Assembly: GCF_003339775.1 (NCBI RefSeq)
Contig: NZ_CP031088.1
Span: 62,001 to 126,000, forward strand
DNA: 64,000 nt
From: Spiroplasma phoeniceum P40
GTDB lineage: Bacteria; Bacillota_I; Bacilli_A; Mycoplasmatales; Mycoplasmataceae
Reading direction: 5' to 3'
The notes below the pieces were generated by a model that was not told the origin of the DNA, did not search any database, and saw only the letters and a list, made by a program, of their open reading frames with translations. The position numbers were made by a program, and so were the translations under genes. Positions 5,128 through 24,264 of this stretch are shown one piece after another. How positions within the stretch are numbered: the first letter of the stretch is position 1; each line of letters begins with the position of its first letter.

Positions 5128-5129
5128 TA

Positions 5130-5891: not shown

Positions 5892-5974
5892 AAGTAAGGT
5901 GGTGTGGTGGTTTATCCACGCACCACCTTACTTAAAGGGGTAAAAGTCGCGGAGCGACTTAGGGGCGAAGCCCC
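5892..5974. repeat. plectrovirus hairpin cluster (copy 1 of 4)
   Basis: Three consecutive hairpins follow the adhesin gene: a 13-bp stem (AAGTAAGGTGGTG/CACCACCTTACTT), GTCGC-GGA-GCGAC and GGGGC-GAA-GCCCC. The last contains GCGAAGC, a mini-hairpin known to be exceptionally stable in ssDNA. The cluster recurs at 12,706, 20,894 and (inverted) 24,403. The GC-rich block is out of character for its surroundings. Likely a terminator plus a replication or packaging signal of the ssDNA phage (inference). Confidence 0.75.
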
Positions 5975-6091
5975 TTTCCTTGATTAAGTAACACAACTGT
6001 CCCAAAGGATTTTTAAGGACATTAAAAGTTTAAAAATTGACAACTAATCAAAAATAAATATAATAGAAATTAGAAATAAAAAGGAGGGAAA

Positions 6092-6370
6092 ATGATTATT
6101 TTAAAAACTATTTTAGAATTTGGAGTTGCTTTTGCAACTATTACTGGATGAAAAAAATCAGATGATTTTAGAAAAGAAATGGATGCCTTATATGCTCCGC
6201 TTAACCAAACATTAAAAAAAGATAATGAAAAATATTGAGAACAAAAATATAAAGAATTAGATGAAAAAATTAAAAATCCAATTGAAAAAAGTACTTCAAT
6301 TTCATACGATGATTTTATAGAACAAACAAAAGCAAAAATTCAAGGTAATAATAATACTGAGGATAAATAA
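6092..6370 (+). CDS. 92-aa cargo protein with N-terminal membrane segment
   Basis: MIILKTILEFGVAFATITGWKK..., one hydrophobic N-terminal helix followed by a charged helical domain (YAPLNQTLKKDNEKYWEQ). A strong AAGGAGGG site precedes it. It occupies the slot between the hairpin cluster and rep, which in the next phage unit holds the KAP NTPase. Trp codons are TGA. Could be an envelope-acting superinfection or immunity factor, but that is inference from position only. Confidence 0.65.
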
Positions 6371-6396
6371 AAATTAGTAAATAAATTAGAATAAAA

Positions 6397-6457
6397 AAAC
6401 ATTTATCCAAATGTTTAATGTATTCAAACCAATAAAGGTTTTCAGCCAGGAAACTTT
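6397..6457 (+). promoter_or_regulatory. two hairpins in the rep leader; second loop CAGCCAG
   Basis: The first is AAACATTT-ATCC-AAATGTTT (6397-6416). The second is AAAG-G-TTTC...GAAA-CTTT (6434-6457), whose loop holds CAGCCAG at 6443-6449. Rep starts 50 nt downstream. The same stem and loop recur at 7,707-7,730, and the loop alone sits on another stem at 7,517-7,523. In the next phage unit the equivalent loops are CTTCTGAC. Likely a binding site for a phage protein or a replication signal. Confidence 0.6.
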
Positions 6458-6506
6458 AAATATAAGTAAATGTTTTTTTATTTTTGTTTTAGAAAGGAAA
6501 TAAAAA

Positions 6507-7514
6507 ATGAATGTAAATATAAATCCTTATAATCGTTTGACTGGAGAAGTTCTATACAGACCTTATATTGATAGTAGTAATTTTGTTAATCAAAAATATT
6601 ATGTTAAAAAAGTATATTATGGTCCTTATATTAAAACGATTGTATTACCGTTAGAATGTATTAATAAATTTGGTAATGGCAATCCAACTGGTATTAAAAA
6701 TACTGGTGAAAATGAAACTAAATTAGTAAATAGTCGTGTTCGTTCTCAAGCAAATTGTATTCGTAAAGCAATTCATAATTTTAGTGGTTGTAAAAATATG
6801 AGTTTTTTAACTTTAACTTATGCTGAAAATGTCCAAGATATTAAAAAAGCAAACCATCATTTTAGATTATTTATTCGAAGATTAAATTATTATTTTTCTA
6901 AATATAAAAAAAATAAATATAAAGACTTAAAATATTTAGTTGCTTATGAATATCAAAAAAAAGGAAGAATACATTTTCATATAATATTTAGTGAATATAT
7001 CCCTAATAAAGTAGTTAGAAAATGTTGACCTTATGGATATAATAAAAATTTACCAGTTAAAACTGGTACAAATGAATTTGTTAGTAAATATGTTGCTAAA
7101 TATATTGTAAAAGCACAAAGCGAAGAAAAAAGTAAAAATATTTATGACTTAAATATCAAAGCATATCGTTTTAGTACAAATTGTACTGACCCACTTATAA
7201 AGGTTGGTGTTATTGAAATGTGCGAAATGGAATTAATTGCATCTTTAAAAGGAACGAAACATAATTTTATGTTTAATAATAAAGATGGTTATTTAATGGG
7301 TGTTAGTATTGATAGTGATTGAAATAAAGATTATTTTTGACAAATGGAAGAATATGTTCCGTATGATAAAAAAATATTCCGGTTTTTTAATAAAATAACG
7401 GATATTGGCATATATAAAACACGAAAAAAATTAGATAAATACCTTAATTTAGGTAAACAAAGGTATATTAAAAAAAGTACCTTCCAAATGGAAAGTACTA
7501 ATTGTGTAGCATAG
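6507..7514 (+). CDS. HUH-type rolling-circle replication initiator (plectrovirus Rep)
   Basis: 335 aa. HUH motif 2 is visible as GRIHFHIIF, and the catalytic Tyr/Lys motif 3 as FVSKYVAKYIVKA. A conserved LTLTYAENV motif 1 lies upstream, so the three rolling-circle Rep motifs are in the usual order. An AGAAAGGAA site precedes the ATG. It nicks the phage origin and drives replication of the filamentous ssDNA genome. Intact under code 4. The C-terminus (STNCVA) differs from the copy at 14,821 because the loop motif CAGCCAG/CTTCTGAC lies across the stop. Confidence 0.85.
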
Positions 7515-7530
7515 TTCAGCCAGAACCTAT
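7511..7530 (+). promoter_or_regulatory. hairpin at rep 3' end with loop CAGCCAG
   Basis: ATAG-TT-CAGCCAG-AA-C-CTAT forms a short stem spanning the rep stop codon. The loop (7517-7523) is identical to the loops at 6443 and 7716 and differs as a set from those of the second phage unit. A poly-A tract of about 16 follows at 7,551. Confidence 0.5.
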
Positions 7531-7625
7531 ACCACATAACTAATTAAAACAAAAAAAAAAAAAAAAACAAGGTGAGTATATAAATTTATAAATAAATTTA
7601 TTTTTTGCTTTGAAATATGTACTAG

Positions 7626-7653
7626 TTGACATATTGATTTTGTTATGTAAAAT
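7626..7653 (+). promoter_or_regulatory. promoter for the phage structural operon
   Basis: TTGACA (7626-7631), a 16-nt spacer and TAAAAT (7648-7653). The same promoter lies at 15,947-15,974 in the second unit. It precedes the leader hairpin and the ssDNA-binding-like gene. Confidence 0.6.
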
Positions 7654-7691
7654 TAAATTAGAATATTATATATAACATTTAGTTATATTTA

Positions 7692-7730
7692 AGTATTCAA
7701 ACCAATAAAGGTTTTCAGCCAGGAAACTTT
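7692..7730 (+). promoter_or_regulatory. leader hairpin with loop CAGCCAG
   Basis: Repeats the sequence found ahead of rep: TATTCAAACC, then AAAG-G-TTTC, the loop CAGCCAG (7716-7722) and GAAA-CTTT. The region from 7,531 to 7,891 holds no gene apart from the poly-A tract, the promoter and this element. Confidence 0.55.
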
Positions 7731-7891
7731 AAATATAGGTAAATGTTTTTATTTTGCATTTATATTTACATTCATTTTGTATTAATTTTTTATTAAATTA
7801 GTTTTTATTTTTTAACATTTATTTTATTTAAAGTTTTAAACCTTGTGAAACCTTTATTTACATATATGTAAATGAAAGGAATTTTTTAGTT

Positions 7892-8206
7892 ATGTTTAAA
7901 GTTTATTTAAGTGATATTAAGTACAATCAAGTTATTAAAGATAAGTCAAATAAAGAAAATTATTATGATGTATATACATTTTTACGAGTTGAAGGTAAAA
8001 AAATAGTTGGTAAAGAATACCAAGATAAATGAGTTCGTAAAGATAGTGAATTTCAAAATAGTTTGCCTGAAATGATTGAAGGTAGTTTCTATAATGTAGA
8101 AATTGGTTTTAACGGTAAAATATCAAAAATATTGCCTTATGAAACCGAACAAGATTTTATTAATAAATATTCTAATAATTCAACAATAACAGAAAGCAAT
8201 AGTTAA
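7892..8206 (+). CDS. phage ssDNA-binding-like protein, 104 aa
   Basis: MFKVYLSDIKYNQVIKDKSN..., rich in alternating strands (YYDVYTFLRVEG, YNVEIGFNGKISKILP) with basic patches and an acidic/polar tail (NKYSNNSTITESNS). Its size, beta content and position right after rep parallel the gene V-type single-strand binding proteins of filamentous phages. That assignment is inference, since no diagnostic motif is visible. The second unit has a virtually identical copy. Confidence 0.5.
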
Positions 8207-8207
8207 T

Positions 8208-8339
8208 ATGCAACAACAGTTATGTATGGTTTGTATTAATGATATTGTTTGAGAAAATGGGTCTCGTTATTGTTGGAATTGTGTTAATGAAAATGTTGTT
8301 TTAATTAATCAATATTATTCTAGGTTAGATAATGACTAA
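8208..8339 (+). CDS. 43-aa zinc-finger microprotein
   Basis: MQQQLCMVCINDIVWENGSR..., with two CxxC pairs (LCMVC and YCWNC), so a four-Cys zinc ribbon is likely. It starts one base after the preceding stop, and its 3' end overlaps the next gene by 8 nt. Conserved at 16,529. Phage accessory protein of unknown role. Confidence 0.6.
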
Positions 8340-8418
8340 GAAAAAATCAGATTGTTATTTATGTAATAGACAAGATATTATTTGTCCTAAACATAAAAAA
8401 ATTATTAAGGTTAAATAA
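8332..8418 (+). CDS. 28-aa zinc-binding microprotein
   Basis: MTKKKSDCYLCNRQDIICPK..., with the Cys/His set C8, C11, C18, H21, a plausible single zinc site. It overlaps both neighbours (ATGAC; TAATG). The second unit keeps the Cys/His core but ends five residues earlier. Confidence 0.5.
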   Translation: MTKKKSDCYLCNRQDIICPKHKKIIKVK

Positions 8419-8534
8419 TGACAAAAAATAAAGATAAATTAAATATTAATTGAGACTGAATTATTTTTATAGTTTCTTGTTTATTGTTAGTTATTTGGTT
8501 TATATTGTTTTTTGTTTATGTTGGATTTTTTTAA
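8418..8534 (+). CDS. 38-aa single-pass membrane microprotein
   Basis: MTKNKDKLNINWDWIIFIVS..., a basic N-terminus plus one long hydrophobic helix. Coupled on both sides by TAATG. It is entirely missing from the second phage unit, where the 73-aa gene follows directly, so it is dispensable. Confidence 0.55.
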
Positions 8535-8755
8535 TGAAAAAGCAAACTAAGTTATATAAACAGCGATTAGAGTATTTAGTTAATGTTATACATCAATGTT
8601 TACCTACTAAAATACCATTATTTATGTTAAGAAAAGCAATTAAATTGTATCTTAGTCATAAAGTTATTAATATTGGTGTTATGGAAGAACAACATTTTAA
8701 ATTATTAGTGGAGCAAGTCAAAAATTATATGTTAAATATAGAAAGCAAAAATTAA
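8534..8755 (+). CDS. 73-aa phage protein
   Basis: MKKQTKLYKQRLEYLVNVIH..., basic N-terminus and predicted helices, no membrane segment. The upstream TTTTTTTAATGAAAAAG junction couples it to the previous gene. It is 90% or more identical to 16,726-16,947. Role unknown. Confidence 0.6.
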   Translation: MKKQTKLYKQRLEYLVNVIHQCLPTKIPLFMLRKAIKLYLSHKVINIGVMEEQHFKLLVEQVKNYMLNIESKN

Positions 8756-8774
8756 AAAAAGGTGGTGATAATTA

Positions 8775-8957
8775 ATGACCGTTTTTGCAACAATTATTTT
8801 AGTAATTGCAATGTTAATGTTATTGATTTTTTTAACAGTTAATACAATATTTAGGTTTAAAAATAAGTATTTAATTTGTCCGCATTGTTCTAAAAAAGTA
8901 GAATTTAAAGAATGGGGAAAACGAAAAATTAAAAAAGCAGATAAGTCTGTTGAATAA
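8775..8957 (+). CDS. 60-aa membrane protein with C-terminal CxxC
   Basis: MTVFATIILVIAMLMLLIFL..., an N-terminal transmembrane helix, then CPHCSKKVEF and a basic tail. An AGGTGGTG site precedes it. Likely located at the assembly site. The antisense open frame over this gene (8,732-8,968) is ignored. Confidence 0.6.
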   Translation: MTVFATIILVIAMLMLLIFLTVNTIFRFKNKYLICPHCSKKVEFKEWGKRKIKKADKSVE

Positions 8958-8974
8958 GTTAATATCAATCAAAT

Positions 8975-9048
8975 ACCTTCGCAAGTATAAAAATTGATTT
9001 TAGTTTTTAGTGTTAATTACTAAAATCAAGGTTAGAGTATGCGAAGGT
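8975..9048 (+). promoter_or_regulatory. nested hairpin between early and coat genes
   Basis: The outer stem is ACCTTCGCA (8975-8983) with TGCGAAGGT (9040-9048). The inner stem is TTGATTTTAGT (8994-9004) with ACTAAAATCAA (9019-9029). It is followed by TTTTATTATT, so it could terminate or attenuate. The 3' arm of the inner stem is also the first half of a 20-nt repeat that pairs with 9306-9325 beyond the coat gene. Confidence 0.65.
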
Positions 9049-9088
9049 TTTATTATTAATAGAAAGTATTTTAAATGAGGTGTTATTA

Positions 9089-9292
9089 ATGAATTTAAAT
9101 TTATTAGCGGGCGACGCTGATGTTATTAAACAAATAGGCGATTTTGCTGCAATTCTTGCTGATTGAGCGATTGCTTTTACTAACTGATTTATTACTTTTT
9201 TAGGGTCACATATGTTATTAATTATTCCGTTAGTTTTAATGTTTGTGGTTTTGGGAATTGAAACAATCAGAAAGTTAATTCACGGAGTTTAA
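9089..9292 (+). CDS. major coat protein of plectrovirus (probable)
   Basis: 67 aa: an amphipathic N-terminal half with acidic residues and two Trp (TGA), one hydrophobic segment (MLLIIPLVLMFVVLGI) and a basic C-terminus (ETIRKLIHGV). That is the architecture of inovirus coat proteins, with an acidic outside, a membrane helix and a basic DNA-facing tail. It has a GAGGTG site and its own flanking structures, as expected for a highly expressed gene. The assignment is by architecture. Confidence 0.7.
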
Positions 9293-9305
9293 TATTTAAT
9301 AATAA

Positions 9306-9325
9306 ACTCTAACCTTGATTTTAGT
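9306..9325 (+). repeat. 20-nt inverted repeat arm downstream of coat gene
   Basis: Exact reverse complement of 9019-9038, so the coat gene is enclosed by a potential 20-bp stem. The second unit has the same arrangement (17,211-17,230 and 17,498-17,517, one mismatch). Confidence 0.8.
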
Positions 9326-9354
9326 AGTTAACATTTAGGAAAGGAATAAGAAAA

Positions 9355-9513
9355 ATGCAAAGTGTATGAGATTTATATTATGAATTTATGACAATTATTT
9401 TCGGAGTTAATCATCCTGTTATTTTAGATATTGTTATATTTGTTGTATTTTTAATACTTGTTTTTGGTATGTTATTTTTAATTTTAAGTTGTATTTTTAG
9501 GTGGATAAAATAA
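9355..9513 (+). CDS. 52-aa phage membrane protein
   Basis: MQSVWDLYYEFMTIIFGVNH..., one long hydrophobic helix and a basic end (RWIK). A GGAAAGGAA site precedes it. It aligns by pattern with the frameshifted gene at 31,260-31,410 in the other phage subtype. Probably a minor coat or assembly subunit. It overlaps the next start by TAATG. Confidence 0.6.
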
Positions 9514-9722
9514 TGGATTGAAATACTTTTTTGCAACGAGTATATCAAGGTCTTTTACAAATTTTTTATTTTATTCCGAAAACTGAAATTGATAACTTTG
9601 TTGGTAGTTCTATTGATAATATTACTTATGCAGTGATTATGATAGGTATTTGATTAGTTGTTTTTTTTCTAATTTGGTTATCAATATTTATTTTATATAA
9701 AACAATTAGATTGGTGGTGTAG
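9513..9722 (+). CDS. 69-aa phage membrane protein
   Basis: MDWNTFLQRVYQGLLQIFYF..., hydrophilic head and a C-terminal membrane helix (VIMIGIWLVVFFLIWLSIF). Equivalent to the nonsense-mutated gene at 31,413-31,616. Likely a minor virion or assembly protein. Confidence 0.6.
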
Positions 9723-9726
9723 ATAT

Positions 9727-10737
9727 ATGTTTAAAAATTATTTTAATTTATTTAGAAGACAAAAAAATATTAAGGTTTCTTATTGATATGTAAATTGATT
9801 TATGGCAAATATTTTGTTCTATTTTTTTATTGTTTGTTTTAATTTACAGTTTATATATTTTAGTTCTACATCAGTTATAGATATTATCTTTTTTATTTTT
9901 TTAGTAATTTTTAATATTATTTTCTTTTGGTCTTTTTTTAGTGATTTTTTTCAAACACGGAAATTAATTAAAATTGTTAAAAGTAGTCCAATATCAATTA
10001 TTAACGGTGCTTTGGGTACTGGTAAAACTTTATTGATGACTTATTTATCACAAATTGCTAAATTTGATAATGTTTATTCTAATTATTTTATTAATGATGA
10101 AAAAATTGGAGTTTTAGGTTTAAACCACTTAGATTTTAAAAATAAAAATTATAAGATACCGTCAAATGATAGTTTAATTTTATTTGATGAAATATTTTTG
10201 TATATGAATGGTGCTAAACCCGAAGAAAACAATAAAAAGTTTAGTGGTTTAATTCCATATTTTTTATTATGTCGTCAGTTTGATAATAACATTGTTTTTG
10301 CTGGACAACGAATTAATCAGAATTGAGTGGAATATAGAGAAATTACTAATATGATTATTGTTCCTATGCAATGTATTCCACCTAGTATATTTTTTCCTTA
10401 TTTTAAAATGAAAATAGGTTTCTTTGATGATTTAGATGATTATTTAGTATGAAAAACGGAAACAGTTAAACGAACAGCAAACGGGAAAAGAGTTCGTAAA
10501 AAATCTAATAAAGATATTGGTATTAATTTTGTTAAGATAACAATTCCTTTATCTATTGCAATGCAATATGATAGTAAATATTTAAAATTTGTGCGTGATT
10601 TAAAAAATGATAAAGTACCAAGTTATATTAAACAAAATTGACCTAGTATTGTTAAAAAAGATATTACGCTTAATGAATTACGAGAGATGGGGATGGAACA
10701 TTTATTAAAGAATTTGGGAGAGTTAGAAAATGATTAA
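9727..10737 (+). CDS. Zot-like phage assembly ATPase (pI-like)
   Basis: 336 aa. One or two membrane helices at residues about 25-70, then Walker A GALGTGKT, Walker B-like SLILFDEIFLY, and a CRQFDNNIVFAGQRINQNW segment typical of Zonula occludens toxin/pI-family inovirus ATPases. It drives export and assembly of the filament through the membrane. Intact only with UGA = Trp. It overlaps the next gene by 8 nt. Confidence 0.85.
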
Positions 10738-11023
10738 TTTACTTGCTAATGATGTATGAAATGGTGCTATTAATGTTGTGGTTGATATTTTTATGAAAAT
10801 AATGGATTGAATGTGAACTTTAAAATTGCCAGGTACAAATATTCCTTTATTTGTAATTTGAGTAATTGGTGGTGTTATAAATGTCATTATGTTATTGGTT
10901 AATAGTTCTCGTGGTTTAAGTTCAGTTTCTCGTTCTTCTTTACAAGCAAGAAAGCAAATATCTAATGGAGTTAAAAATATAAGTAATAATTCTAAAAGTA
11001 ATAATAAGGATAGTGATAAATAA
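10730..11023 (+). CDS. 97-aa phage membrane protein
   Basis: MINLLANDVWNGAINVVVDI..., two hydrophobic segments then a Ser/Asn/Lys-rich tail (SNGVKNISNNSKSNNKDSDK). Homologue of 32,622-33,017. Translationally coupled to the Zot-like gene and to the following gene (TAATG). Confidence 0.6.
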
Positions 11024-11259
11024 TGTTAAAGTTAATATTTTTCTTTGTTATTGGTTTAACTGTTGGATTTGGTTTTATTGCTAATATTGTTGTGGCAACA
11101 GATTTAGGTTTTTCTACTGTTAAAAATTATTTGGAGTCTGCTAATGATTTTTATAAATTAGTAGCACAGTTATTTATTATTGCGACACATCCTATTTTCC
11201 AGTTATATATGGCGTTTGGAATTATTATTATGGGTATTAGAATTATTTTTATTGTTTAG
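11023..11259 (+). CDS. 78-aa phage membrane protein
   Basis: MLKLIFFFVIGLTVGFGFIA..., two hydrophobic helices separated by a short polar loop (STVKNYLESANDFYK). Equivalent to 33,017-33,253. Position before the terminal adhesin-like gene suggests a minor coat or assembly subunit. Confidence 0.6.
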   Translation: MLKLIFFFVIGLTVGFGFIANIVVATDLGFSTVKNYLESANDFYKLVAQLFIIATHPIFQLYMAFGIIIMGIRIIFIV

Positions 11260-11271
11260 GGGGTCAAAACA

Positions 11272-12678
11272 ATGCGAAAACGATTATTAGATATATTTAT
11301 TATTTTTTATTTAATATTTGGTTGAATATTTCTTTTTTGTAGTGCTACAACTATAAATTATATTAGTAATGTTTGTAAAGTAGAAACAAGAAATAATGAT
11401 AATTTTAGTGATTTAACTTATGCAAAAGCAAATGAATATGATTTTCAGTCTACTTTAATGTTGCGACAAGATTATTTTATGCAAGGTTTAGACCCTAGTA
11501 ATTATGCATTTAGTTTTGGTGTTGAAACTCCTTTTATTCCAAATGTAAGTGCTGATAAAAATGATAGTAATTTTTGATTTAATAAAATTAAAAATACTGG
11601 TTGAAGTTATTTATTAAGTTGAAACCCAAAAGATATTTCTGAGGTGGGTTCTTTGGGTAGATTAATAATAGATTATAAAACGCCAAATAAATTGTTAGAT
11701 ATTTTTATTTATAAAAACAATATAAAATATGAATTTACTTTTAATTGAGAAATTATACAATATTTATTTATGCCAATTATTGCCAATCAGAGTTATAAAC
11801 ATTTTGATATGAATTATTTAGTTTTAAATTTTAATTATAAAGAATTGCTTAATATGGATATTCTTAAAAAATCTAACAGTAATTATTTTGTTAATGATGT
11901 TAAACAAAATTTTTATTCGTTGGATAATTTATTTCAAGTTTTAGATTATTTTTATTCTAATGTTTTAAGAGTTATATTTGATATTTCTAATTTTAGAGAA
12001 TTTATTTATTTTACATCTAATAATGGTAATTTAGGTTTTGTGTTTTTTGTAAAAAATGGTTTTTTATTATATCCAAAATCAATGGTTTTTAATATTTTAA
12101 GATTTCCTGATACAGATATTTATTATTTAAAACCACGAGTGCAATTATATAATGCCTATACGATAAATAGTACTAATGATTATTTTTCTTATTATTCAAA
12201 TTGAGATTATAAGACTAATATTTTACCTTCTAATAATGATAAATATACTCAATCAATAAAATTATTAGATATGACAGATAGGTCAAAATATCAAGGTTTT
12301 AATTTAATTAGATTTAGTACAACTACATTAATAGAAAATAGATCTATTTCAATTAATGGTTTTAATTTTAGTCTTTATAATGCTACTGATTGAAATGGTG
12401 AATTTAATGATGGAAAAATTTGACAATTACCTTATAAAAAAGGTGCTTGATACCGTTTAGATATTCATATTGAAAATGCGGCAATTTGGATTGTAAATAA
12501 TTTGCCTGGTATGAAAGAAATTTATAAATTTGTTAATGGGATAGTACATGTGTTTAGTAATGTTTCTGAATTGTTTAATAATATTGGTAATTTGTTTGCT
12601 TTTGATATTACATTTAAAATTATGTTAAGTTCTATTTTAGTTTTAGCAATGGTTAACGGACTTTTACGCTATTTTTAA
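11272..12678 (+). CDS. plectrovirus terminal adsorption/adhesin-like protein
   Basis: 468 aa. N-terminal signal/anchor (IFIIFYLIFGWIFLFCS), a large Asn/Tyr/Phe-rich extracellular region, and a C-terminal membrane anchor (IMLSSILVLAMVNGLLRYF). This is the layout of a pIII-type host-attachment protein at the end of the structural operon. Code 4 removes many TGA breaks. Pieces of the same gene occur at 5,130, 24,513 (inverted) and 26,631/33,265/33,398 (other subtype). Confidence 0.7.
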
Positions 12679-12705
12679 TAGTAAAAATAATGTTGTTGGT
12701 AAAAA

Positions 12706-12788
12706 AAGTAAGGTGGTGTGGTGGTTTATCCACGCACCACCTTACTTAAAGGGGTAAAAGTCGCGGAGCGACTTAGGGGCGAAGCCCC
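12706..12788. repeat. plectrovirus hairpin cluster (copy 2 of 4)
   Basis: 13-bp stem 12706-12718/12735-12747, GTCGCGGAGCGAC at 12760-12772, GGGGCGAAGCCCC at 12776-12788. Identical to the other copies while neighbouring DNA diverges just beyond, so it marks the fixed left border of the cargo slot. Confidence 0.75.
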
Positions 12789-13127
12789 TTTCCTTGATTA
12801 AGTAACACAACTGTCCCAAAGGATTTTTAAGAATATTAAAAGTTTAAAAAATTAGATAAAATTGACCGAGTCCAGTTTAATATATAAAATAATATATAAA
12901 TTAATATTAATAAAAAATAATTAAATAAAAATAATAGTTTAGTTGAAATTTATATTATGTAATTAAAATTGTTTATTGACATAATCATTAATATTTTTTT
13001 GTTTTTAAAAAATAATGAACTTAGTAATATCATTTTTATCCTCTTTATACCTATTATAAATATTCTTATAAGGGTTTTAAAAAAATGGTATAATATTTGC
13101 AACTAATAAATTTATAAGGAGAAAAAA
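12789..13127 (+). promoter_or_regulatory. cargo-slot leader before the KAP gene
   Basis: Shared phage sequence runs to about 12,845 and is then unique and very AT-rich. A TATAAT -10 box lies at 13,089-13,094, with only weak -35 candidates. AAGGAG precedes the ATG at 13,128. The cargo therefore seems to have its own promoter. No other gene seen. Confidence 0.5.
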
Positions 13128-14582
13128 ATGACATATAACACAGAAAATATAATAACTTTTATTGATAAATTTTTTAAAATTAAAGATAAAGAAAATAGTA
13201 ATGTACAAAATAAAGAATATACCAACAACTTAAATATTAAAGGACAATGGGGGAGCGGAAAAACAACATATATTCAAAAATTAGAAAAAGAGTTAGAAGA
13301 AAAAGAATATCAAGTAAAAATATTTAATGTTTGAGAATATGAAATTTCTGACAATATTTTTGTAAGTGTACTATGTGATATATTAAGATTTTTCAATTAT
13401 AAACCTAAAAATAAATTTGCTTTAAAAAAATTTGTAAAAAGTTTGATAACTGTTAGTGGTGAATATGCTATTAATTTTGCAAGTTATTATTTAAAAATTG
13501 AATCACCTTTAAAATATATCAAAAAAATAATTCATAAATCAAAAGACAAGGAAGATAATTTATTACAATTTAATAATTACAATGAGGCAATTAATGAAAT
13601 TATTAGGCAAATAAATTTATATACTCAATATTCAAAAAATATCTTTATTTTTGATGAACTTGATAGATGTACTACACCGAAAATGATTGAATTTTTAAGT
13701 ATTATTAAAAATATATTATTTAGATTAAATAATTGTTTTTTTATTGTTAGTTGTGATTCAGATAGAATAAACAAAATGCTTATCCAAAATGAAAATAATA
13801 ACAATGAAATCCAAAATGAAAATAATAACAATGAAAGTTATACTGATAAGATTTTTTATAATACTATAAATATTGAAAATTTAAATTATTTTGATGAAGC
13901 AATTATTTGTACAAATAATGTAATGATTAAAAGTCATTTATTAAAATTTATTTTAATAAATGATCTAAAAAATGATTATAGAAAAGTAAACAAAGCAATT
14001 AATCGTGCCAACAATTTTATATTATCTTTTAAAAATAATGATAATAATTTTAATTGAGAACTTTTTGAATTTATTGCTTTTTGAATTTATTATAAAAATA
14101 TTAATTTATTAAAAATTAATGGAAATTTATCAGATTTAAATTTATACTTATTATTTAGAAAATTTAATAATTCTACTAAAAATAATTTTTTTGAAAAAAA
14201 TAAAGATTCAACTAAAAAAGAGGCAAATGAACTTTTTGAAATTGTAAATATTGATAGAAATTGTTTTATAAGAGTTTATAATGAAAAAAATATAAGTATA
14301 CCGTTCGGTCTTTTTGCTCCATTTATAAAAGATATTAATAACTTTGATTTTGAAAATTTATGCAATATTACTGATATTGAAGACCCAGATAAATACTTAA
14401 GCAATAAAAAAAAATATTTAGGAGATTATTTAGAATATAAAAATATATATAAATATTTAGACAAAGACGGCCAAGAATTATTTGATAAAATTTTTAGTTA
14501 TTGTTATTATAGAAAATGAATATATATAGAATTAGATATAAGAACTAAAAAATACTTTGAATATATGCAAAATATAATATAA
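13128..14582 (+). CDS. KAP-family P-loop NTPase (phage cargo)
   Basis: 484 aa under code 4. Walker A GQWGSGKTT at residues about 39-47 and Walker B IFIFDELDRC at about 172-181, followed by a sensor-like FFIVSCDSDRI. These are the hallmarks of KAP NTPases, a family that includes the F-plasmid phage-exclusion protein PifA. The usual KAP membrane helices within the NTPase domain are weak here (a mild hydrophobic patch around 105-125). A 27-nt direct repeat (IQNENNNNE twice) sits after the sensor region. It lies alone in the cargo slot between two phage units. Exclusion of other phages is an inference. Confidence 0.85.
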
Positions 14583-14734
14583 ATAAAATTTCTTATTTGT
14601 ATTTTTTTCAATTTTTATAAGTGGGTAGATAATAAAAAATTAATTTAAAATTAAAAAAATTGTTTTATTTTTAAGTTAAAAAATTTATAATTTAAATTAG
14701 AAGAAAAAAACATTTATCCAAATGTTTAATGTAT

Positions 14735-14772
14735 TCAAACCAAAATAAACGGTTTCTTCTGACGAAACTTTA
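14735..14772 (+). promoter_or_regulatory. rep leader hairpin of unit 2, loop CTTCTGAC
   Basis: Same position and stem as 6434-6457, but the loop is CTTCTGAC (14,756-14,763) between GGTTT and GAAAC. An upstream hairpin AACATTT-ATCC-AAATGTT is also kept. The stretch 14,583-14,820 holds no gene. Confidence 0.6.
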
Positions 14773-14820
14773 AATATAAGTAAATGTTTTTTTATTTTTG
14801 TTTTAGAAAGGAAATAAAAA

Positions 14821-15858
14821 ATGAATGTAAATATAAATCCTTATAATCGTTTGACTGGAGAAGTTCTATATAGACCTTATATTGATAATAGTAATTTTGT
14901 TAATCAAAAATATTATGTTAAAAAAGTATATTATGGTCCATATATTAAAACGATTGTATTACCGTTAGAATGTATTAATAAATTTGGTAAAGGCAATCCA
15001 ACTGGAATTAAAAATACTGGTGAAAATGAGACTAAATTATTAAATAGTCGTGTTCGTTCACAAGCAAATTGTATTCGTAAAGCAATTCATAATTTTAGTG
15101 GTTGTAAAAAAAATATGGGTTTTTTAACTTTAACTTATGCTGAAAATGTCCAAGATATTAAAAAAGCAAACCATCATTTTAGATTATTTATTCGAAGATT
15201 AAATTATTATTTTTCTAAATATAAAAAAAATAAATATAAAGATTTAAAATATCTAGTTGCCTATGAATATCAAAAAAAAGGAAGAATACATTTTCATATA
15301 ATATTTAGTGAATATATCCCTAATAAAGTAGTTAGAAAATGTTGACCTTATGGGTATAATAAAAATTTACCAGTTAAAACTGGTACAAATGAATTTGTTA
15401 GTAAATATGTTGCTAAATATATTGTAAAAGCACAAAGCGAAGAAAAAAATAAAAATATTTATGACTTAAATACAAAGGCATATCGTTTTAGTGCTAATTG
15501 TACTGACCCGATTGTTAAAGTTGGCGTTATTGAAATGTGTGAAATGGAATTAATTGCTTCATTAAAAGGTACAAAACATAATTTTATGTTTAATAATAAA
15601 GATGGTTATTTAATGGGTGTTAGCATTGATAGTGATTGAAATAAAGATTATTTTTGACAAATGGAAGAATATGTCCCATATGATAAAAAAATATTTCGGT
15701 TTTTCAAAAAAATATCTAATTTAGACATATATCGAACGCGAAAAAAACTTGATAAATACCTTAATTTAGGTAAACAAAGGTACATTAAAAAAAGTACCTT
15801 CCAAATGGAAAGTACTAGTTTTTTGCAGTATAGTCTTCTGACAACCTATACCACATAA
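14821..15858 (+). CDS. HUH-type rolling-circle Rep (second phage unit)
   Basis: 345 aa, about 95% identical to the 6,507 copy, with GRIHFHIIF and SKYVAKYIVKA intact. The C-terminus is longer (ending SFLQYSLLTTYTT) because the loop sequence near the stop is CTTCTGAC instead of CAGCCAG. Intact and presumably functional. Confidence 0.85.
15828..15851 (+). promoter_or_regulatory. hairpin at rep 3' end, loop CTTCTGAC
   Basis: GTATAG-T, loop CTTCTGAC (15,835-15,842), then CTATAC at 15,846-15,851. Same place as 7,511-7,530, with the loop changed together with the other two loops of this unit. Confidence 0.5.
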
Positions 15859-15946
15859 TTAATTAAAACAAAAAAAAAAAAAAAAAGCAAGTTGAGGATA
15901 TAAATTTATAAATAAATTTATTTTTTTGCTTTAAAATATGTAGTAG

Positions 15947-15974
15947 TTGACATATTTATTTTGTTGTGTAAAAT
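15947..15974 (+). promoter_or_regulatory. promoter of structural operon, unit 2
   Basis: TTGACA (15,947-15,952), 16-nt spacer, TAAAAT (15,969-15,974). Conserved with 7,626-7,653. Confidence 0.6.
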
Positions 15975-16013
15975 TAAATTAGGATATTATATATAACATT
16001 TAGTTATATTTAA

Positions 16014-16055
16014 GTATTCAAACCAATAAAGGTTTCTTCTGACGAAACTTTAAAT
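16014..16055 (+). promoter_or_regulatory. operon leader hairpin, loop CTTCTGAC
   Basis: Third member of the unit-2 loop set, loop at 16,036-16,043 on the AAAGGTTT/GAAACTTT stem. No gene is seen between the rep end and 16,213 apart from the poly-A tract, promoter and this element. Confidence 0.55.
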
Positions 16056-16212
16056 ATAGGTAAATGTTTTTATTTTGTATTTATATTTACATTCATTTTG
16101 TATTAATTTTTTATTAAATTAGTTTTTATTTTTTAACATTTATCTTATTTAAAGTTTTAAACCTTGTGAAACCTTTATTTACATATATGTAAATGAAAGG
16201 AATTTTTTAGTT

Positions 16213-16527
16213 ATGTTTAAAGTTTATTTAAGTGATATTAAGTACAATCAAGTTATTAAAGATAAGTCAAATAAAGAAAATTATTATGATGTATATACAT
16301 TTTTACGAGTTGAAGGTAAAAAAATAGTTGGTAAAGAATACCAAGATAAATGAGTTCGTAAAGATAGTGATTTTCAAAATAGTTTGCCCGAAATGATTGA
16401 AGGTAGTTTCTATAATGTAGAAATTGGTTTTAACGGTAAAATATCAAAAATATTGCCTTATGAAACCGAACAAGATTTTATTAATAAATATTCTAATAAT
16501 TCAACAATAACAGAAAGCAATAGTTAA
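16213..16527 (+). CDS. ssDNA-binding-like protein (unit 2)
   Basis: 104 aa, differing from the 7,892 copy at essentially one residue (DSDFQ versus DSEFQ). Same context and reasoning as that entry. Confidence 0.5.
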
Positions 16528-16528
16528 T

Positions 16529-16660
16529 ATGCAACAACAGTTATGTATGGTTTGTATTAATGATACTGTTTGAGAAAATGGGTCTCGTTATTGTTGAAAT
16601 TGTGTTAATAAAAATGTTGTTTTAATTAATCAATGTTATTCTAGGTTAGATAATGACTAA
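16529..16660 (+). CDS. 43-aa zinc-finger microprotein (unit 2)
   Basis: Same four-Cys protein as 8,208-8,339. A third Cys appears near the end (INQCYSRL). The second Trp of the CWNC segment is TGA here but TGG in unit 1. Confidence 0.6.
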
Positions 16661-16724
16661 GAAAAAATCAGATTGTTATTTATGTAATAGGCAAGATATT
16701 ATTTGTCCTAAACATAAAAAATAA
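16653..16724 (+). CDS. 23-aa zinc-binding microprotein (unit 2)
   Basis: Keeps C8, C11, C18, H21 and ends CPKHKK. The stop comes earlier than in unit 1 because the following 38-aa membrane gene has been deleted, joining it to the 73-aa gene. Confidence 0.5.
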   Translation: MTKKKSDCYLCNRQDIICPKHKK

Positions 16725-16725
16725 A

Positions 16726-16947
16726 ATGAAAAAGCAAACTAAGTTATATAAACAAAGATTACAATATTTGGTTAATGTTATTCATCAATGTTTACCTACT
16801 AAAATACCTTTATTTATGTTAAGAAAAGTAATTAAGTTATATCTTAATCATAATGTTATTGATATTGGTGTTATGGAAGAACAACATTTTAAATTATTAG
16901 TGGAGCAAGTCAAAAATTATATGTTAAATATAGAAAGCAAAAATTAA
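16726..16947 (+). CDS. 73-aa phage protein (unit 2)
   Basis: Homologue of 8,534-8,755 with scattered synonymous and conservative changes, which shows purifying selection rather than a recent duplication or an assembly error. Confidence 0.6.
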   Translation: MKKQTKLYKQRLQYLVNVIHQCLPTKIPLFMLRKVIKLYLNHNVIDIGVMEEQHFKLLVEQVKNYMLNIESKN

Positions 16948-16966
16948 AAAAAGGTGGTGATAATTA

Positions 16967-17149
16967 ATGACCGTTTTTGCAACAATTATTTTAGTAATTG
17001 CAATGTTAATGTTATTAGTTTTTTTAACAGTTAATACAATATTTAGATTTAAAAATAAGTATTTAATTTGTCCGCATTGTTCTAAAAAAGTAGAATTTAA
17101 AGAATGGGGAAAACGAAAAATTAAAAAAGCAGATAAGTCTGTTGAATAA
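16967..17149 (+). CDS. 60-aa membrane/CxxC protein (unit 2)
   Basis: As 8,775-8,957, with one Ile/Val change in the membrane helix. CPHCSKKVEF retained. Confidence 0.6.
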   Translation: MTVFATIILVIAMLMLLVFLTVNTIFRFKNKYLICPHCSKKVEFKEWGKRKIKKADKSVE

Positions 17150-17166
17150 GTTAATATCAATCAAAT

Positions 17167-17240
17167 ACCTTCGCAAGTATAAAAATTGATTTTAGTTTTT
17201 AGTGTTAATTACTAAAATCAAGGTTAGAGTATGCGAAGGT
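17167..17240 (+). promoter_or_regulatory. nested hairpin before coat gene (unit 2)
   Basis: ACCTTCGCA at 17,167-17,175 pairs with TGCGAAGGT at 17,232-17,240. The inner TTGATTTTAGT/ACTAAAATCAA stem is kept. Nucleotides 17,211-17,230 also match the arm beyond the coat gene at 17,498-17,517. Confidence 0.65.
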
Positions 17241-17280
17241 TTTATTATTAATAGAAAGTATTTTAAGTGAGGTGTTATTA

Positions 17281-17484
17281 ATGAATTTAAATTTATTAAC
17301 GGGCGACGCTGATGTTATTAAGCAAATAGCGGATTTTGCTGCTATTCTTGCTAATTGAGCGATTGCTTTTACTAACTGATTTATTACTTTTTTAGGGTCA
17401 CATATGTTATTAATTATTCCGTTAGTTTTAATGTTTGTGGTTTTAGGAATTGAAACAATCAGAAAGTTAATTCACGGATATTAA
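17281..17484 (+). CDS. major coat protein (unit 2, probable)
   Basis: 67 aa, with a few substitutions relative to unit 1 (LTGDAD, ADFAAILANW, terminal GY). Same architecture and GAGGTG site. Confidence 0.7.
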
Positions 17485-17497
17485 TATTTAATAATAA

Positions 17498-17517
17498 ACT
17501 CTAATCTTGATTTTAGT
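17498..17517 (+). repeat. inverted repeat arm downstream of coat (unit 2)
   Basis: Pairs with 17,211-17,230 over 19 of 20 positions. The single change (C to T opposite G) keeps a G-U pair in RNA, which supports an RNA-level role. Confidence 0.7.
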
Positions 17518-17546
17518 AATTAACATTTAGGAAAGGAATAAGAAAA

Positions 17547-17705
17547 ATGCAAAGTGTATGAGATTTATATTATGAATTTATGACAATTATTTTCGGAGTT
17601 AATCATCCCGCTATTTTAGATATTGTTATATTTGTTGTATTTTTAATACTTGTTTTTGGGATGTTATTTTTAATTTTAAGTTGTATTTTTAGGTGGATAA
17701 AATAA
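17547..17705 (+). CDS. 52-aa phage membrane protein (unit 2)
   Basis: As 9,355-9,513, with Val to Ala in the NHPVIL segment. Minor coat or assembly subunit by position. Confidence 0.6.
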
Positions 17706-17914
17706 TGGACTGAAATATTTTTTTGCAACGAGTATATCAAGGTCTTTTACAAATTTTTTATTTTATTCCGAAAACTGAAATTGATAACTTTGTCGGTAGT
17801 TCTATTGATAATATTACTTATTCAGTAATTATGATAGGTGTTTGATTAGTTGTTTTTTTTCTAATTTGGTTATCAATATTTATTTTATATAAAACAATTA
17901 GATTGGTGGTGTAG
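17705..17914 (+). CDS. 69-aa phage membrane protein (unit 2)
   Basis: As 9,513-9,722, with minor substitutions in the membrane helix. TAATG coupling retained. Confidence 0.6.
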
Positions 17915-17918
17915 ATAT

Positions 17919-18929
17919 ATGTTTAAAAATTATTTTAATTTATTTAAAAGACAAAAAAATATTAAGTTTTCTTATTGATATGTAAATTGATTTATGGCAA
18001 ATATTTTGTTTTATTTTTTTATTGTTTGTTTTAATTTACAATTTATATATTTTAGTTCTACATCAGTTATAGATATTATTCTTTTTATTTTTTTAGTAAT
18101 TTTTTATATTATTTTCTTTTGGTCTTTTTTTAGTGATCTTTTTCAAACACGGAAACTTGTTAAAATTGTTAAAAGTAGTCCAATATCAATTATTAACGGT
18201 CCTTTGGGTACTGGTAAAACTTTATTGATGACTTATTTATCGCAAATTGCTAAATTTGATAATGTTTATTCTAATTATTTTATTAATGATGAAAAAATTG
18301 GAGTTTTAGGTTTAAACCATTTAGATTTTAAAAATAAAAAATATAAAATACCGCCAGATGATAGTTTAATTTTATTTGATGAAATATTTTTATATATAAA
18401 TGGTACAAACCCTAAGGAAAATGATAAAAAATTTAGTGGTTTAAAAGCATATTTTTTATTATGTCGTCAGTTTAATAATAATATTATTTTTGCCGGACAA
18501 CGAATTAATCAAAATTGAGTCGAATATAGAGAAATTGCTAATATGATTATTGTTCCTATGCAATGTATTCCACCTAGTATATTTTTTCCTTATTTTAAAA
18601 TGAAAATAGGTTTTTTTGATGATTTAGATGATTATTTAACATGAAAAACGGAAACGGTTAAACGAACAGCAAACGGAAAAAGAGTTCGTAAAAAATCTAA
18701 TAAAAATATTGGTATTAATTTTGTTAAGATAAAAATTCCTTTATCTATTGCAATGCAATATGATAGTAAATATTTAAAGTTTGTACGTGATTTAAAAAAT
18801 GATAAAGTACCAAGTTATACTAAGCAAAATTGACCTAGTATTGTTAAAAAAGATATTACGATTAATGAATTACGAGAGATGGGGATGGAACATTTATTAA
18901 AGAATTTAGGAGAGTTAGAAAATGATTAA
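17919..18929 (+). CDS. Zot-like phage assembly ATPase (unit 2)
   Basis: 336 aa. Walker A is GPLGTGKT (GALGTGKT in unit 1), and Walker B-like SLILFDEIFLY is identical. Substitutions cluster in the 120-150 region around NGTNPKENDKKFSGLKAYF. Intact. Confidence 0.85.
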
Positions 18930-19215
18930 TTTACTTGCTAATGATGTATGAAATGGTGCCATTAATGTTGTAGTTGATATTTTTATGAAAATAATGGATT
19001 GAATGTGAGCATTAAAATTGCCGGGTACAAATATTCCTTTATTTGTAATTTGAGTAATTGGTGGTGTTATAAATGTTATCTTTTTGTTAGTTAATAGTTC
19101 TCGTGGTTTAAGTTCAGTTTCTCGTTCTTCTTTACAAGCAAGTAAAAAAATATCTAATGGAGTTAAAAATATAAGTAATAATTCTAAAAGTAATAATAAG
19201 GAGAATGATAAATAA
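18922..19215 (+). CDS. 97-aa phage membrane protein (unit 2)
   Basis: As 10,730-11,023. Two membrane segments and the Ser/Asn/Lys-rich tail are conserved. Confidence 0.6.
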
Positions 19216-19451
19216 TGTTAAAGTTAATATTTTTCTTTGTTATTGGTTTAACTGTTGGGTTTGGTTTTGTTGCTAATATTGTTGTGGCAACAGATTTAGG
19301 TTTTTCTACTGTTAAGCATTATTTGGAGTCTGCTAATGATTTTTATAAATTAGTAGCACAGTTATTTATTATTGCAACACACCCTATTTTCCAGTTATAT
19401 ATGGCGTTTGCAATTATTATTATGGGTATTAGAATTATTTTTATTGTTTAG
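19215..19451 (+). CDS. 78-aa phage membrane protein (unit 2)
   Basis: As 11,023-11,259, with three substitutions. TAATG coupling to the previous gene. Confidence 0.6.
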   Translation: MLKLIFFFVIGLTVGFGFVANIVVATDLGFSTVKHYLESANDFYKLVAQLFIIATHPIFQLYMAFAIIIMGIRIIFIV

Positions 19452-19463
19452 GGGGTTAAAACA

Positions 19464-20867
19464 ATGCGAAAACGATTATTAGATATATTTATTATTTTTT
19501 ATTTAATATTTGGTTGAATATTTCTTTTTTGTAGTGCTACAACTATAAATTATATTAGTAATGTTTGTAAAGTAGAAACAAGAAATAATGATAATTTTAG
19601 TGATTTAACTTATGCAAAAGCAAATGAATATGATTTTCAGTCTACTTTAATGTTGCGACAAGATTATTTTATGCAAGGTTTAGATCCTAGTAATTATGCA
19701 TTTAGTTTTGGTGTTGAAACTTCTTTTATTCCAAATGTAAGTGCTGATAAAAATGATAGTAATTACTGATTTAATAAAATTAAAAATACTGCTTGAGATT
19801 ATTTATTAAGTTGAAACCCGAAAGATATTTCTAAGGGTCCTTTGGGTAAATTAATTATTAATTATGAAACCCCAAATAAATTGTTAGATATTTTTATTTA
19901 TAAAAACAATATAAAATATGAATTTACTTTTAATTGAGAAATTATAGAATATTTATTTATGCCAATTATTGCCAATCAGAGTTATAAACATTTTGATATG
20001 AATTATTTAGTTTTAAATTTTAATTATAAAGAATTGATTAATATGGATATTCTTAAAAAATCTAACAGTAATTATTTTGTTAATGATGTTAAACAAAATT
20101 TTTATTCGTTGGATAATTTATTTCAAGTTTTAGATTATTTTTATTCTAATGTTTTAAGAGTTATATTTGATATTTCTAATTTTAGAGAATTTATTTATTT
20201 TACATCTAATAATGGTAATTTAGGTTTTGTGTTTTTTGTAAAAAATGGTTTTTTATTATATCCAAAATCAATGGTTTTTAATATTTTAAGATTTCCTGAT
20301 ACAGATATTTATTATTTAAAGCCACAAGTGCAATTGTATAATGCTTATACGATAAATAGTACTAATGATTATTTTTCTTATTATTCAAATTGAGATTATA
20401 AGACTGATATTTTACCTTCTAATAATGATAAATGAACTCAATCAATAAAATTATTAGATATGACAGATAGGTCAAAATATCAAGGTTTTAATTTAATTAG
20501 ATTTAGTACAACTAGATTAACAGAAGATAGGTCTATTTCAATTAATGGTTTTAATTTTAGTTTTTATAATGCTACTGATTGAAGTGGTGAACTTAATGAT
20601 GGAAAAATTTGACAATTACCTTATAAAAAAGGTGCTTGATACCGTTTAGATATTCATATTGAAAATGCGGCAATTTGGATTGTAAATAATTTGCCTGGTA
20701 TGAAAGAAATTTATAAATTTGTTAATGGGATAGTACATGTGTTTAGTAATGTTTCTGAATTGTTTAATAATATTGGTAATTTGTTTGCTTTTGATATTAC
20801 ATTTAAAATTATGTTAAGTTCTATTTTAGTTTTAGCAATGGTTAACGGACTTTTACGCTATTTTTAA
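19464..20867 (+). CDS. terminal adhesin-like protein (unit 2)
   Basis: 467 aa, with the same signal and C-terminal anchor as 11,272-12,678. Most differences from unit 1 lie in the 150-175 region (KDISKGPLGKLIINYET), while the C-terminal third is nearly identical in all copies. Intact under code 4. Confidence 0.7.
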
Positions 20868-20893
20868 TAGTAAAAATAATGTTGTTGGTAAAA

Positions 20894-20976
20894 AAGTAAG
20901 GTGGTGTGGTGGTTTATCCACGCACCACCTTACTTAAAGGGGTAAAAGTCGCGGAGCGACTTAGGGGCGAAGCCCC
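20894..20976. repeat. plectrovirus hairpin cluster (copy 3 of 4)
   Basis: Same three hairpins as 12,706-12,788. Immediately after the shared GTCCCAAAGG tail, the sequence changes to the Panacea-like gene at 21,015. Confidence 0.75.
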
Positions 20977-21014
20977 TTTCCTTGATTAAGTAACACAACT
21001 GTCCCAAAGGGTTT

Positions 21015-21496
21015 TTAAATTCTAAATATTATTATATTTAAATCGAATAATGTATAGTGATTTAAATTCAATAATTCAGATAAATTATTAGAGTAATAAT
21101 TTATAATTTTTTCATCACTAATATATTCATTTTTTGGCGTTTGTTTTCATGGTTCACATTCATGTGAAAGATTAGCTAGTCCAAATGCTGAAAATTTATT
21201 TAATTCAAACAGTAATGAATCTAATTCTAATATTTCTAAATTAGTTAGTTCATTCAATTTTATTTTTTTTTCGGAATTTCAATAGGATTTTTTTCATATT
21301 TTTTATATTTATCATAAACATCTTTAATTACTGGACCATAATCTCATCTTTGAAATTTATCATTAAAAATCTTTTTTTGTTTGTTAACTAAAAAATATAC
21401 ATATATAAAATAAAGACTTTTTTGTAATTTTAATTGTGTAATTGCATCTTCATAAATACGCTGTATTATATACTCGCTTAATTTACATGCTTTCAT
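21015..21496 (-). pseudogene. Panacea (DUF4065/SocA-like antitoxin) domain protein, frameshifted
   Basis: Reads MKACKLSEYIIQRIYEDA..., then KLQKSLYFIYVYFL, FNDKFQRWDYGPVIKDVYDKYK and, after a one-base slip, LANLSHECEPWKQTP. The KLQKLxYF, W.YGPV..xVY and LSHxxPWxxT blocks are typical of Panacea-domain proteins, which neutralise various toxins or anchor phage/TA modules. The two halves are in different frames, joined at the A9 run near 21,263-21,271. As written, translation stops at 21,260 (78 aa). No partner toxin is visible. It sits in the third cargo slot, opposite in orientation to the phage. Confidence 0.7.
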
Positions 21497-23724: not shown

Positions 23725-24264
23725 TTAATTTTTTTGATCAAATATATGAATAATTCTTCCATTTTTATCTTCATTTTCATCTTCATTTATAATAATTCCA
23801 ACACCATTATTATTTTTTATTAAAGGTTTTGAAAAAATTTCAGGAATATCTAAATAAAAATTATTATAAAAAATTTTATCTGAAAGTGATTTTCTATTCA
23901 TTTTTGATACAAATTCATTAACATCATCATTAGAATTATTTGTTGCTACTTTTTGGATTATAAAATCTATCATTTGGTCTGATTTTTGAGCATGTAATAT
24001 TGAATCATTAGTTGAAATTTTATTAAGATTTTGAATTGTTTCTGAAGATAAATAAATAATTCAAGGTGCAAAAAAAGTTTTTTTTGTTTTATCAACTGTA
24101 TATATACTATTTTTTAATATTTTATCTTCTCCCCGAACAACAGAACTACTGCTTTCTCCTATTGAAAAATTTTGATTTTTATTATTTGGCATCATTGCCA
24201 TTAATGGGGTTACTCCACTTGTTGTTATAGCAGTTGCTCCGATTAAACTTATTATTTTTTTCAT
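23725..24264 (-). CDS. secreted cargo protein, 179 aa
   Basis: Signal peptide MKKIISLIGATAITTSGVTP..., with a probable cleavage site near LMAMM, then a hydrophilic domain ending NGRIIHIFDQKN. One internal TGA (FAPWIIYL) shows code 4. It lies in the cargo slot of an inverted phage fragment (between the hairpin cluster at 24,403 and the rep leader) and has its own promoter. No catalytic motif recognised. It could be a surface or insect-interaction factor, but that is speculation. Confidence 0.7.

What the first reader, a model, noticed from the sequence alone, without database searches (positions are those of the whole stretch)
13128..14582. KAP P-loop NTPase carried between two ssDNA phage genomes
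Walker A (GQWGSGKTT) and Walker B (IFIFDELDRC) are clear, and the gene is intact at 484 codons under code 4. The KAP family contains PifA-type phage exclusion NTPases. A 1.5-kb gene is a heavy load for a filamentous genome of about 7-8 kb, so it should be useful, perhaps in superinfection exclusion between plectroviruses or against tailed phages. The role is inference.
Basis: partly seen in the sequence, partly recalled or inferred. Interest (0 to 1): 0.72.

Follow-up and report, generated by a model that had tools for sequence, protein, structure and literature searches.

The report
Defence-like ATPase in plectrovirus cargo slot
A very small single-stranded-DNA phage living in a Spiroplasma chromosome carries, in a slot where related phages each carry a different extra gene, a gene for an ATP-driven protein whose relatives sit among bacterial anti-virus genes, so it may help the infected cell keep other viruses out; this has not been tested.

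Summary
Observation confirmed. 13128-14582 (+) is an intact 484-aa gene under code 4, and Pfam KAP_NTPase is the clear best match (E 3.5e-20). It lies inside an 8,189-bp plectrovirus repeat unit, between the adhesin-like gene ORF1 and rep, in the interior of a tandem provirus array.

That position is a cargo slot. Plectrovirus copies in three Spiroplasma genomes and SVGII3 carry mostly different single genes there, or none. A second KAP-bearing plectrovirus remnant in the same genome shows the same order.

The two KAPs are mosaics: a near-identical NTPase core (93% identity) joined to diverged ends (44% in the C-terminal half), both still open.

The protein is soluble and is not PifA. Its relatives in Mollicutes sit on an integrated conjugative element, plasmid-like elements, or beside IetAS, GmrSD, type III and type IV restriction genes. 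Soluble KAPs (PADLOC PDC-S20) are also prophage cargo. The model's best structural matches are RdrA of RADAR.

Best reading: an accessory defence or superinfection-exclusion ATPase with a variable C-terminal sensing part (about 0.6). Function is inferred.

In passing: each intact citri-clade plectrovirus (also SVTS2 and one other genus) carries its own 8-nt sequence exactly three times around rep.

The parts
13128..14582 (+). KAP-family P-loop NTPase, 484 aa, genetic code 4 (the finding)
   Evidence: Pfam PF07693 E 3.5e-20
13242..13268 (+). Walker A, GQWGSGKTT (residues 39-47)
   Evidence: invariant W41 G42 G44 K45 in 39 KAPs
13641..13670 (+). Walker B, IFIFDELDRC (residues 172-181)
   Evidence: D176 E177 L178 D179 R180 invariant in 39 KAPs
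13089..13121 (+). own promoter-like -10 (TGG-TATAAT, 13089-13094) and ribosome binding site AAGGAG (13116-13121)
   Evidence: read from the sequence; no -35 of note; inferred function
12702..12830 (+). left edge of the cargo slot: hairpin-rich repeat after ORF1, the same in all units
   Evidence: (D8)
14680..14820 (+). right edge of the cargo slot: conserved leader of rep with hairpin
   Evidence: (D10, D12)
14821..15858 (+). plectrovirus rep (REP_ORF2-G2P), 345 aa, unit B
   Evidence: (PF23343 E 1.9e-19)
17919..18929 (+). ORF2, assembly ATPase-like (Zot-like, weak), 336 aa, unit B
   Evidence: tested on the unit A copy; Zot E 0.03, below cut-off; position as ORF2 of SVGII3
19464..20867 (+). 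ORF1 (adhesin CoaA-like), 467 aa, unit B
11901..12830 (+). direct repeat bounding unit B on the left (with 20090-21018, 98.3% over 930 bp): a crossover would release an 8,189-bp circle holding KAP and a full gene set
   Evidence: excision is inferred
20090..21018 (+). direct repeat bounding unit B on the right
6092..6370 (+). 92-aa ORF occupying the same slot in unit A (6507-12678)
   Evidence: no Pfam match
23725..24264 (-). 179-aa protein with signal peptide-like N-terminus in the same slot of a third, decayed plectrovirus on the minus strand (ORF1 tail at 24516-25303, rep start at 23248-23601)

Best explanation
An accessory (moron-type) gene of a Spiroplasma plectrovirus, occupying a cargo slot between ORF1 and rep. 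It encodes a soluble, probably ring-forming P-loop ATPase of the KAP family. From its own promoter in the resident provirus it probably acts as a defence or superinfection-exclusion factor: the conserved NTPase core (about residues 30-250) is the motor or switch, and the fast-changing C-terminal half senses a component of an incoming phage or other mobile element. ATP-driven assembly then stops the invader or the cell. Shown here: family, slot, intactness, mosaic evolution, genomic company of relatives, fold of the core. Inferred: expression, ring formation, sensing and effect.
For: KAP profile E 3.5e-20; candidate-defence profile PDC-S20 2e-16. Same slot in two plectrovirus copies of this genome. 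Relatives in Mollicutes stand beside IetA/IetS, GmrSD, type III Mod genes, a PLD-helicase type IV enzyme, MutH/Sau3AI plus a methyltransferase, and a Z1-domain system. Ten random windows of such genomes gave few restriction-type matches among the listed families. Sporadic: 24 of 198 genomes of the order. Soluble KAPs are cargo of tailed prophages. Model's nearest folds are RdrA of RADAR, Z 14-15.4, E 1.8e-4 and first 11 ranks. C-terminal half 44% identical with pN 0.34 and pS 0.33, core 93% with pS 0.05, while the frame stays open, which neutral drift would not allow.
Against: No test of function exists for this gene or for a close relative; PDC-S20 is a computed candidate class, and no paper on it was found in the library. 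The neighbourhood argument rests on ten loci and relatives at 25-36% identity, and PADLOC also gave generic hits in control windows. The model is of middling confidence (pLDDT 66, C-terminal part mostly under 60). No partner gene lies beside it in the phage, whereas RADAR and Qat need partners. Among slot cargos it is the only one with clear defence kinship; most others look secreted.
Confidence: 0.6

Rival explanations
1. A phage-own regulator or replication helper: an AAA+ initiator-like ATPase that helps Rep or ORF1-to-rep control, and happens to sit beside rep.
For: It stands directly upstream of rep in both copies. Cdc6/Orc, TnsC and RFC folds also appear in the fold search.
Against: Most plectrovirus copies, SVTS2 and SVGII3 have no KAP and other genes or nothing in that place, so it is dispensable. 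Relatives occur on elements without Rep.
Confidence: 0.12
2. A hitchhiker or maintenance gene: cargo picked up from a plasmid or integrated conjugative element and kept briefly, with no service to the phage.
For: Nearest kin are on an ICE-like island and plasmids, one of them decayed. dN/dS in the C-terminal half is near 1.
Against: Both frames are open after about 34% nonsynonymous change, where simulation without selection leaves practically none open. The gene has its own ribosome binding site. It recurs in two phages.
Confidence: 0.15
3. Host-conversion cargo acting on the insect or plant host, like the secreted or lipoprotein-like genes in the same slot of other copies.
For: The slot mostly carries proteins with signal peptide-like starts, and SVGII3 has a propeller protein annotated as a P89 pseudogene there.
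Against: KAP has no signal peptide or transmembrane segment and belongs to an intracellular ATPase family.
Confidence: 0.05
4. PifA- or Tmn-type membrane exclusion NTPase.
For: Family kinship: PifA profile E 7.1e-7. Tmn is a KAP with anti-phage action (PMC11846954).
Against: No transmembrane segment: best 19-residue hydropathy 1.45, against 2.87 and 1.95 in a membrane KAP and 2.94 in the phage's ORF2. Too short and only locally alike.
Confidence: 0.08

Closest known systems
PDC-S20 (PADLOC candidate single-gene defence, soluble KAP about 450 aa; also carried by tailed prophages)
   Same: KAP core with DELDRC, length 450-490 aa, no transmembrane segment, carried by phages and bacterial genomes
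   Different: The window protein scores 58.6 bits over residues 30-309 only; full members tested score 235-562 bits. It lies in an ssDNA phage of Mollicutes, in a separate clade.
RdrA of RADAR
   Same: Closest solved fold of the core and following helices (Z 14-15.4; up to 316 aligned residues in the top rows)
   Different: RdrA has about 800 residues and works with RdrB; no RdrB-like gene is beside the KAP; identity 10-18%
PifA / Tmn (KAP-family exclusion NTPases)
   Same: Same Pfam family; Tmn inhibits T2, P1 and others (PMC11846954)
   Different: Tmn has two transmembrane domains; the window protein has none and matches PifA only over the core
Spiroplasma phage SVGII3 (AJ969242)
   Same: Same phage family, rep 85-86% identical, same slot between ORF1 and rep filled with an extra gene
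   Different: Its slot holds a truncated propeller protein annotated as a P89 pseudogene, not a KAP
KKP of Pf prophages (Pseudomonas filamentous phages)
   Same: A filamentous prophage carrying an accessory anti-phage module (PMC11341870)
   Different: Kinase-kinase-phosphatase module, unrelated protein; Inoviridae, not Plectroviridae

Membership tests
KAP_NTPase (Pfam PF07693) | profile score above the curated cut-off, as best family | tested here: met
   72.9 bits vs 20, E 3.5e-20; next family 4.5e-5
KAP_NTPase (Pfam PF07693) | Walker A GxxGxGK[ST] and Walker B hhhhDELDR | tested here: met
   residues 39-47 and 172-181, key residues invariant in a 39-sequence alignment
PifA / Tmn-type membrane KAP | transmembrane segments inserted in or near the NTPase domain | tested here: not met
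   best hydropathy 1.45 against 1.95-2.94 in membrane controls
PifA / Tmn-type membrane KAP | full-length match to the PifA profile | tested here: not met
   residues 35-220 only, E 7.1e-7, profile 720 positions
PDC-S20 | full-length match at the level of known members | tested here: not met
   58.6 bits over residues 30-309 vs 235-562 bits in members tested
QatA / Qat system | NCBIfam QatA cut-off and qatBCD beside it | tested here: not met
   28.4 bits vs 600; neighbours are phage genes
RADAR (RdrA) | RdrA-like fold | tested here: met
   Z 13.9-15.4, ranks 1-7; ranks 1-11 of Foldseek; core and nearby helices only
RADAR (RdrA) | adjacent rdrB deaminase and about 800 residues | tested here: not met
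   484 aa; flanks are ORF1 and rep; no RdrA profile hit in PADLOC
Plectroviridae (carrier unit) | Rep of REP_ORF2-G2P type, ORF1/ORF2/ORF5/ORF9 order, 4.5-8.3 kb, code 4 | tested here: met
   range from PMC8295915
Plectroviridae (carrier unit) | packaging of the KAP-bearing genome in virions | not testable with these tools
   needs DNase-treated virion DNA

The most novel reading that the evidence does not exclude
A minimal ssDNA phage carries a one-gene immune receptor: a RdrA-like KAP ring ATPase whose C-terminal sensor is exchanged by recombination between resident phages while the motor stays constant, giving each provirus its own specificity in a contest among the many plectroviruses of one cell.
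Probability: 0.2. Interest if true: 0.8.

Novelty: new variant of a known kind. Interest (0 to 1): 0.5.

Why it matters
Phage-borne defence genes are well known in tailed phages and in Pf filamentous phages. Here a plectrovirus of wall-less bacteria devotes a fifth of its genome to a KAP ATPase in a slot that other copies fill with other genes. If it excludes competitors, it would show that even the smallest phages keep an interchangeable armoury. It would also give a tractable one-protein member of a family (KAP) whose mechanism is still open, since PMC11846954 states that how Tmn works is unexplored.

Tried and rejected
PifA-type membrane reading: no transmembrane segment, weak profile. A phage-wide distribution: no ssDNA phage record or viral contig with a close relative; the only hits in phage records are a 41-kb unannotated phage and a Salmonella genome record. 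PDB by sequence: nothing. First structure model from 11 sequences was poor; the second from 39 sequences was usable for the core only. PADLOC counts over control windows were noisy because housekeeping kinases and helicases match it, so I rely on the named restriction and IetAS matches, not on counts. Pure selection as cause of the uneven divergence of the two KAPs was rejected because synonymous sites differ too (p 8e-7 between core and C-terminal half): recombination is needed. A chance ORF was rejected. Matches below RdrA in the fold searches are generic AAA+ proteins.

Full report
What is there. The ORF at 13128-14582 (+) is real and intact under code 4. It is a KAP-family P-loop NTPase by a wide margin. 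It has a good ribosome binding site and a TGG-TATAAT element just upstream, so it can be its own transcription unit. Shuffled DNA of the same composition has a longest stop-free run of 54 codons on average and 131 at most.

Where it sits. The region 5128-21018 is a tandem array of two plectrovirus units with about 0.9-kb terminal redundancy (5128-6036 vs 11942-12850 at 99.8%; 11901-12830 vs 20090-21018 at 98.3%; backbones 95-97% alike). Unit B is 8,189 bp and holds KAP and a complete-looking gene set: rep, ORFC, small membrane proteins, an ORF2 with only weak Zot likeness, ORF5, ORF9 and ORF1, in the order of SVGII3. A crossover between the repeats would release a circle with KAP; this is inferred. 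ICTV gives 4.5-8.3 kb for the family (PMC8295915).

A cargo slot. KAP lies between a hairpin-rich stretch after ORF1 and the leader of rep. In unit A the same place holds a 92-aa ORF. In a third, decayed copy in this window (minus strand, 23.2-25.3 kb) it holds a 179-aa protein with a signal peptide-like start. In copies from two other Spiroplasma genomes it holds various 133-185-aa proteins with such starts, one with a caudovirus prohead-protease domain (PF04586, E 7e-11), a 173-aa protein without a match, or nothing (about 240-370 bp, also in SVTS2). In SVGII3 it holds a propeller protein annotated as a P89 pseudogene. So KAP is one of several interchangeable cargos, and this kind of phage does not need it.

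A second KAP phage. The only other KAP in this genome (C1:786928-788388, 487 aa, intact) stands in the same order: left-edge remnant, KAP, rep, ORFC; an IS30-like element has broken its left side. The two KAPs are mosaics. Residues 60-213 are 93% identical (pS 0.05), residues 1-59 57% (pS 0.39), residues 214-484 44% (pS 0.33, pN 0.34). The rep genes beside them show pS 0.16 and pN 0.02. Synonymous divergence differs between core and C-terminal half (p 8e-7), so recombination, not selection alone, made the pattern. The open frame in the C-terminal half would be lost without selection, and pN/pS near 1 there, against 0.15 in rep, fits fast or diversifying change. With only two sequences this cannot be tested further.

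Relatives. KAPs are scattered: 24 of 198 genomes of the order. The nearest to the phage copies is in a Spiroplasma without plectroviruses, in an island with VirB4-like and VirD4/TraG-like genes and methyltransferases (labels read by eye); a tree puts it as sister with strong support, inside a Mollicutes clade. A decayed copy is on S. kunkelii plasmid pSKU205, where a fragment is annotated as a hypothetical protein. Others stand beside IetA/IetS and RmuC, RmuC alone, DUF2130 with a PemK-like gene, four type III Mod-like genes, GmrSD and a PLD-helicase type IV enzyme, a Z1-domain system, or GmrSD with MutH/Sau3AI and a methyltransferase (some labels read by eye, the key ones by Pfam or PADLOC). 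Control windows listed scattered generic matches with one type II methyltransferase. In dsDNA virus contigs, soluble KAPs of the PDC-S20 class are common cargo, several close to contig or prophage ends.

Fold. The model with 39 sequences has a confident NTPase core (pLDDT mostly 80-94 over residues 31-90 and 161-220) and a weak helical C-terminal part. The best solved matches are all RdrA of the RADAR defence system (Z up to 15.4, generic AAA+ proteins at 12-13; Foldseek E 1.8e-4 with RdrA filling the first 11 ranks). TM-scores over the whole chain are low (0.3-0.4), so this speaks for the core and nearby helices only. The protein has no transmembrane segment by hydropathy.

How it probably works. 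Family, slot, mosaicism, company and core fold are shown. That it protects the infected cell from other phages or mobile elements, that it forms a ring, and that the variable C-terminal half senses the trigger, are inferences. Filamentous prophages with anti-phage modules are known (KKP in Pf, PMC11341870; inovirus genes excluding other phages, PMC6813254), so the idea is not without precedent; a KAP in a plectrovirus was not found in any phage record searched. Novelty: a new variant of a known kind.

The host is a citri-clade Spiroplasma: its plasmids match S. citri plasmids at about 95%. I did not name the species.

A separate observation may be worth more than the KAP. Each intact plectrovirus copy of the citri clade has an 8-nt sequence of its own at exactly three places: in a palindrome about 60-90 nt before rep, at the 3' end of rep between different inverted arms, and in a third palindrome about 190 nt further on. 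The 8-mer is the same at the three places of one phage and differs between phages whose flanks and Rep are nearly identical (unit A TCAGCCAG; unit B CTTCTGAC). The rule also holds in SVTS2 and in a different genus (CCTACCAT three times, CCGCCTAA three times, with closely matching flanks), and was not seen by an exact-repeat search in several more distant families. It may be a virus-specific Rep site (like geminivirus iterons) or the spacer of a recombination site (like lox); what keeps the three in step is unknown.

Noticed in passing
window 6442-6449, 7516-7523, 7715-7722 (TCAGCCAG); 14756-14763, 15835-15842, 16036-16043 (CTTCTGAC); L004, L180, L181 and others: A phage-specific 8-nt sequence stands at exactly three places round rep, each time between inverted arms; identical within a phage, different between phages with near-identical flanks and Rep. 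Seen in all intact citri-clade copies looked at, in SVTS2 and in another genus, not in more distant families. Unexplained.
   Followed up: partly
L047:4596-5135 (-): A plectrovirus slot gene encodes a caudovirus prohead-protease domain behind a signal peptide-like start (PF04586, E 7e-11).
   Followed up: no
L113:649-6858, L114:5496-8014: RmuC-family gene directly upstream of a KAP gene in two Mollicutes, once next to IetA/IetS; DUF2130 upstream of a KAP in a third (L115). A possible two-gene unit.
   Followed up: no
L177 (pSKU205 of S. kunkelii CR2-3x), locus 557-1360: Decayed KAP gene on a plasmid, a fragment annotated as hypothetical protein.
   Followed up: partly
window 4018-4284: Three near-identical 82-bp tandem repeats about 0.8 kb from a DNA methyltransferase-like ORF (2412-3191, minus strand).
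   Followed up: no
window 23.2-25.3 kb and 25417-26349: Further plectrovirus remnants on the minus strand and an ORF2 of another plectrovirus subfamily on the plus strand: at least four phage-derived blocks in 22 kb.
   Followed up: partly
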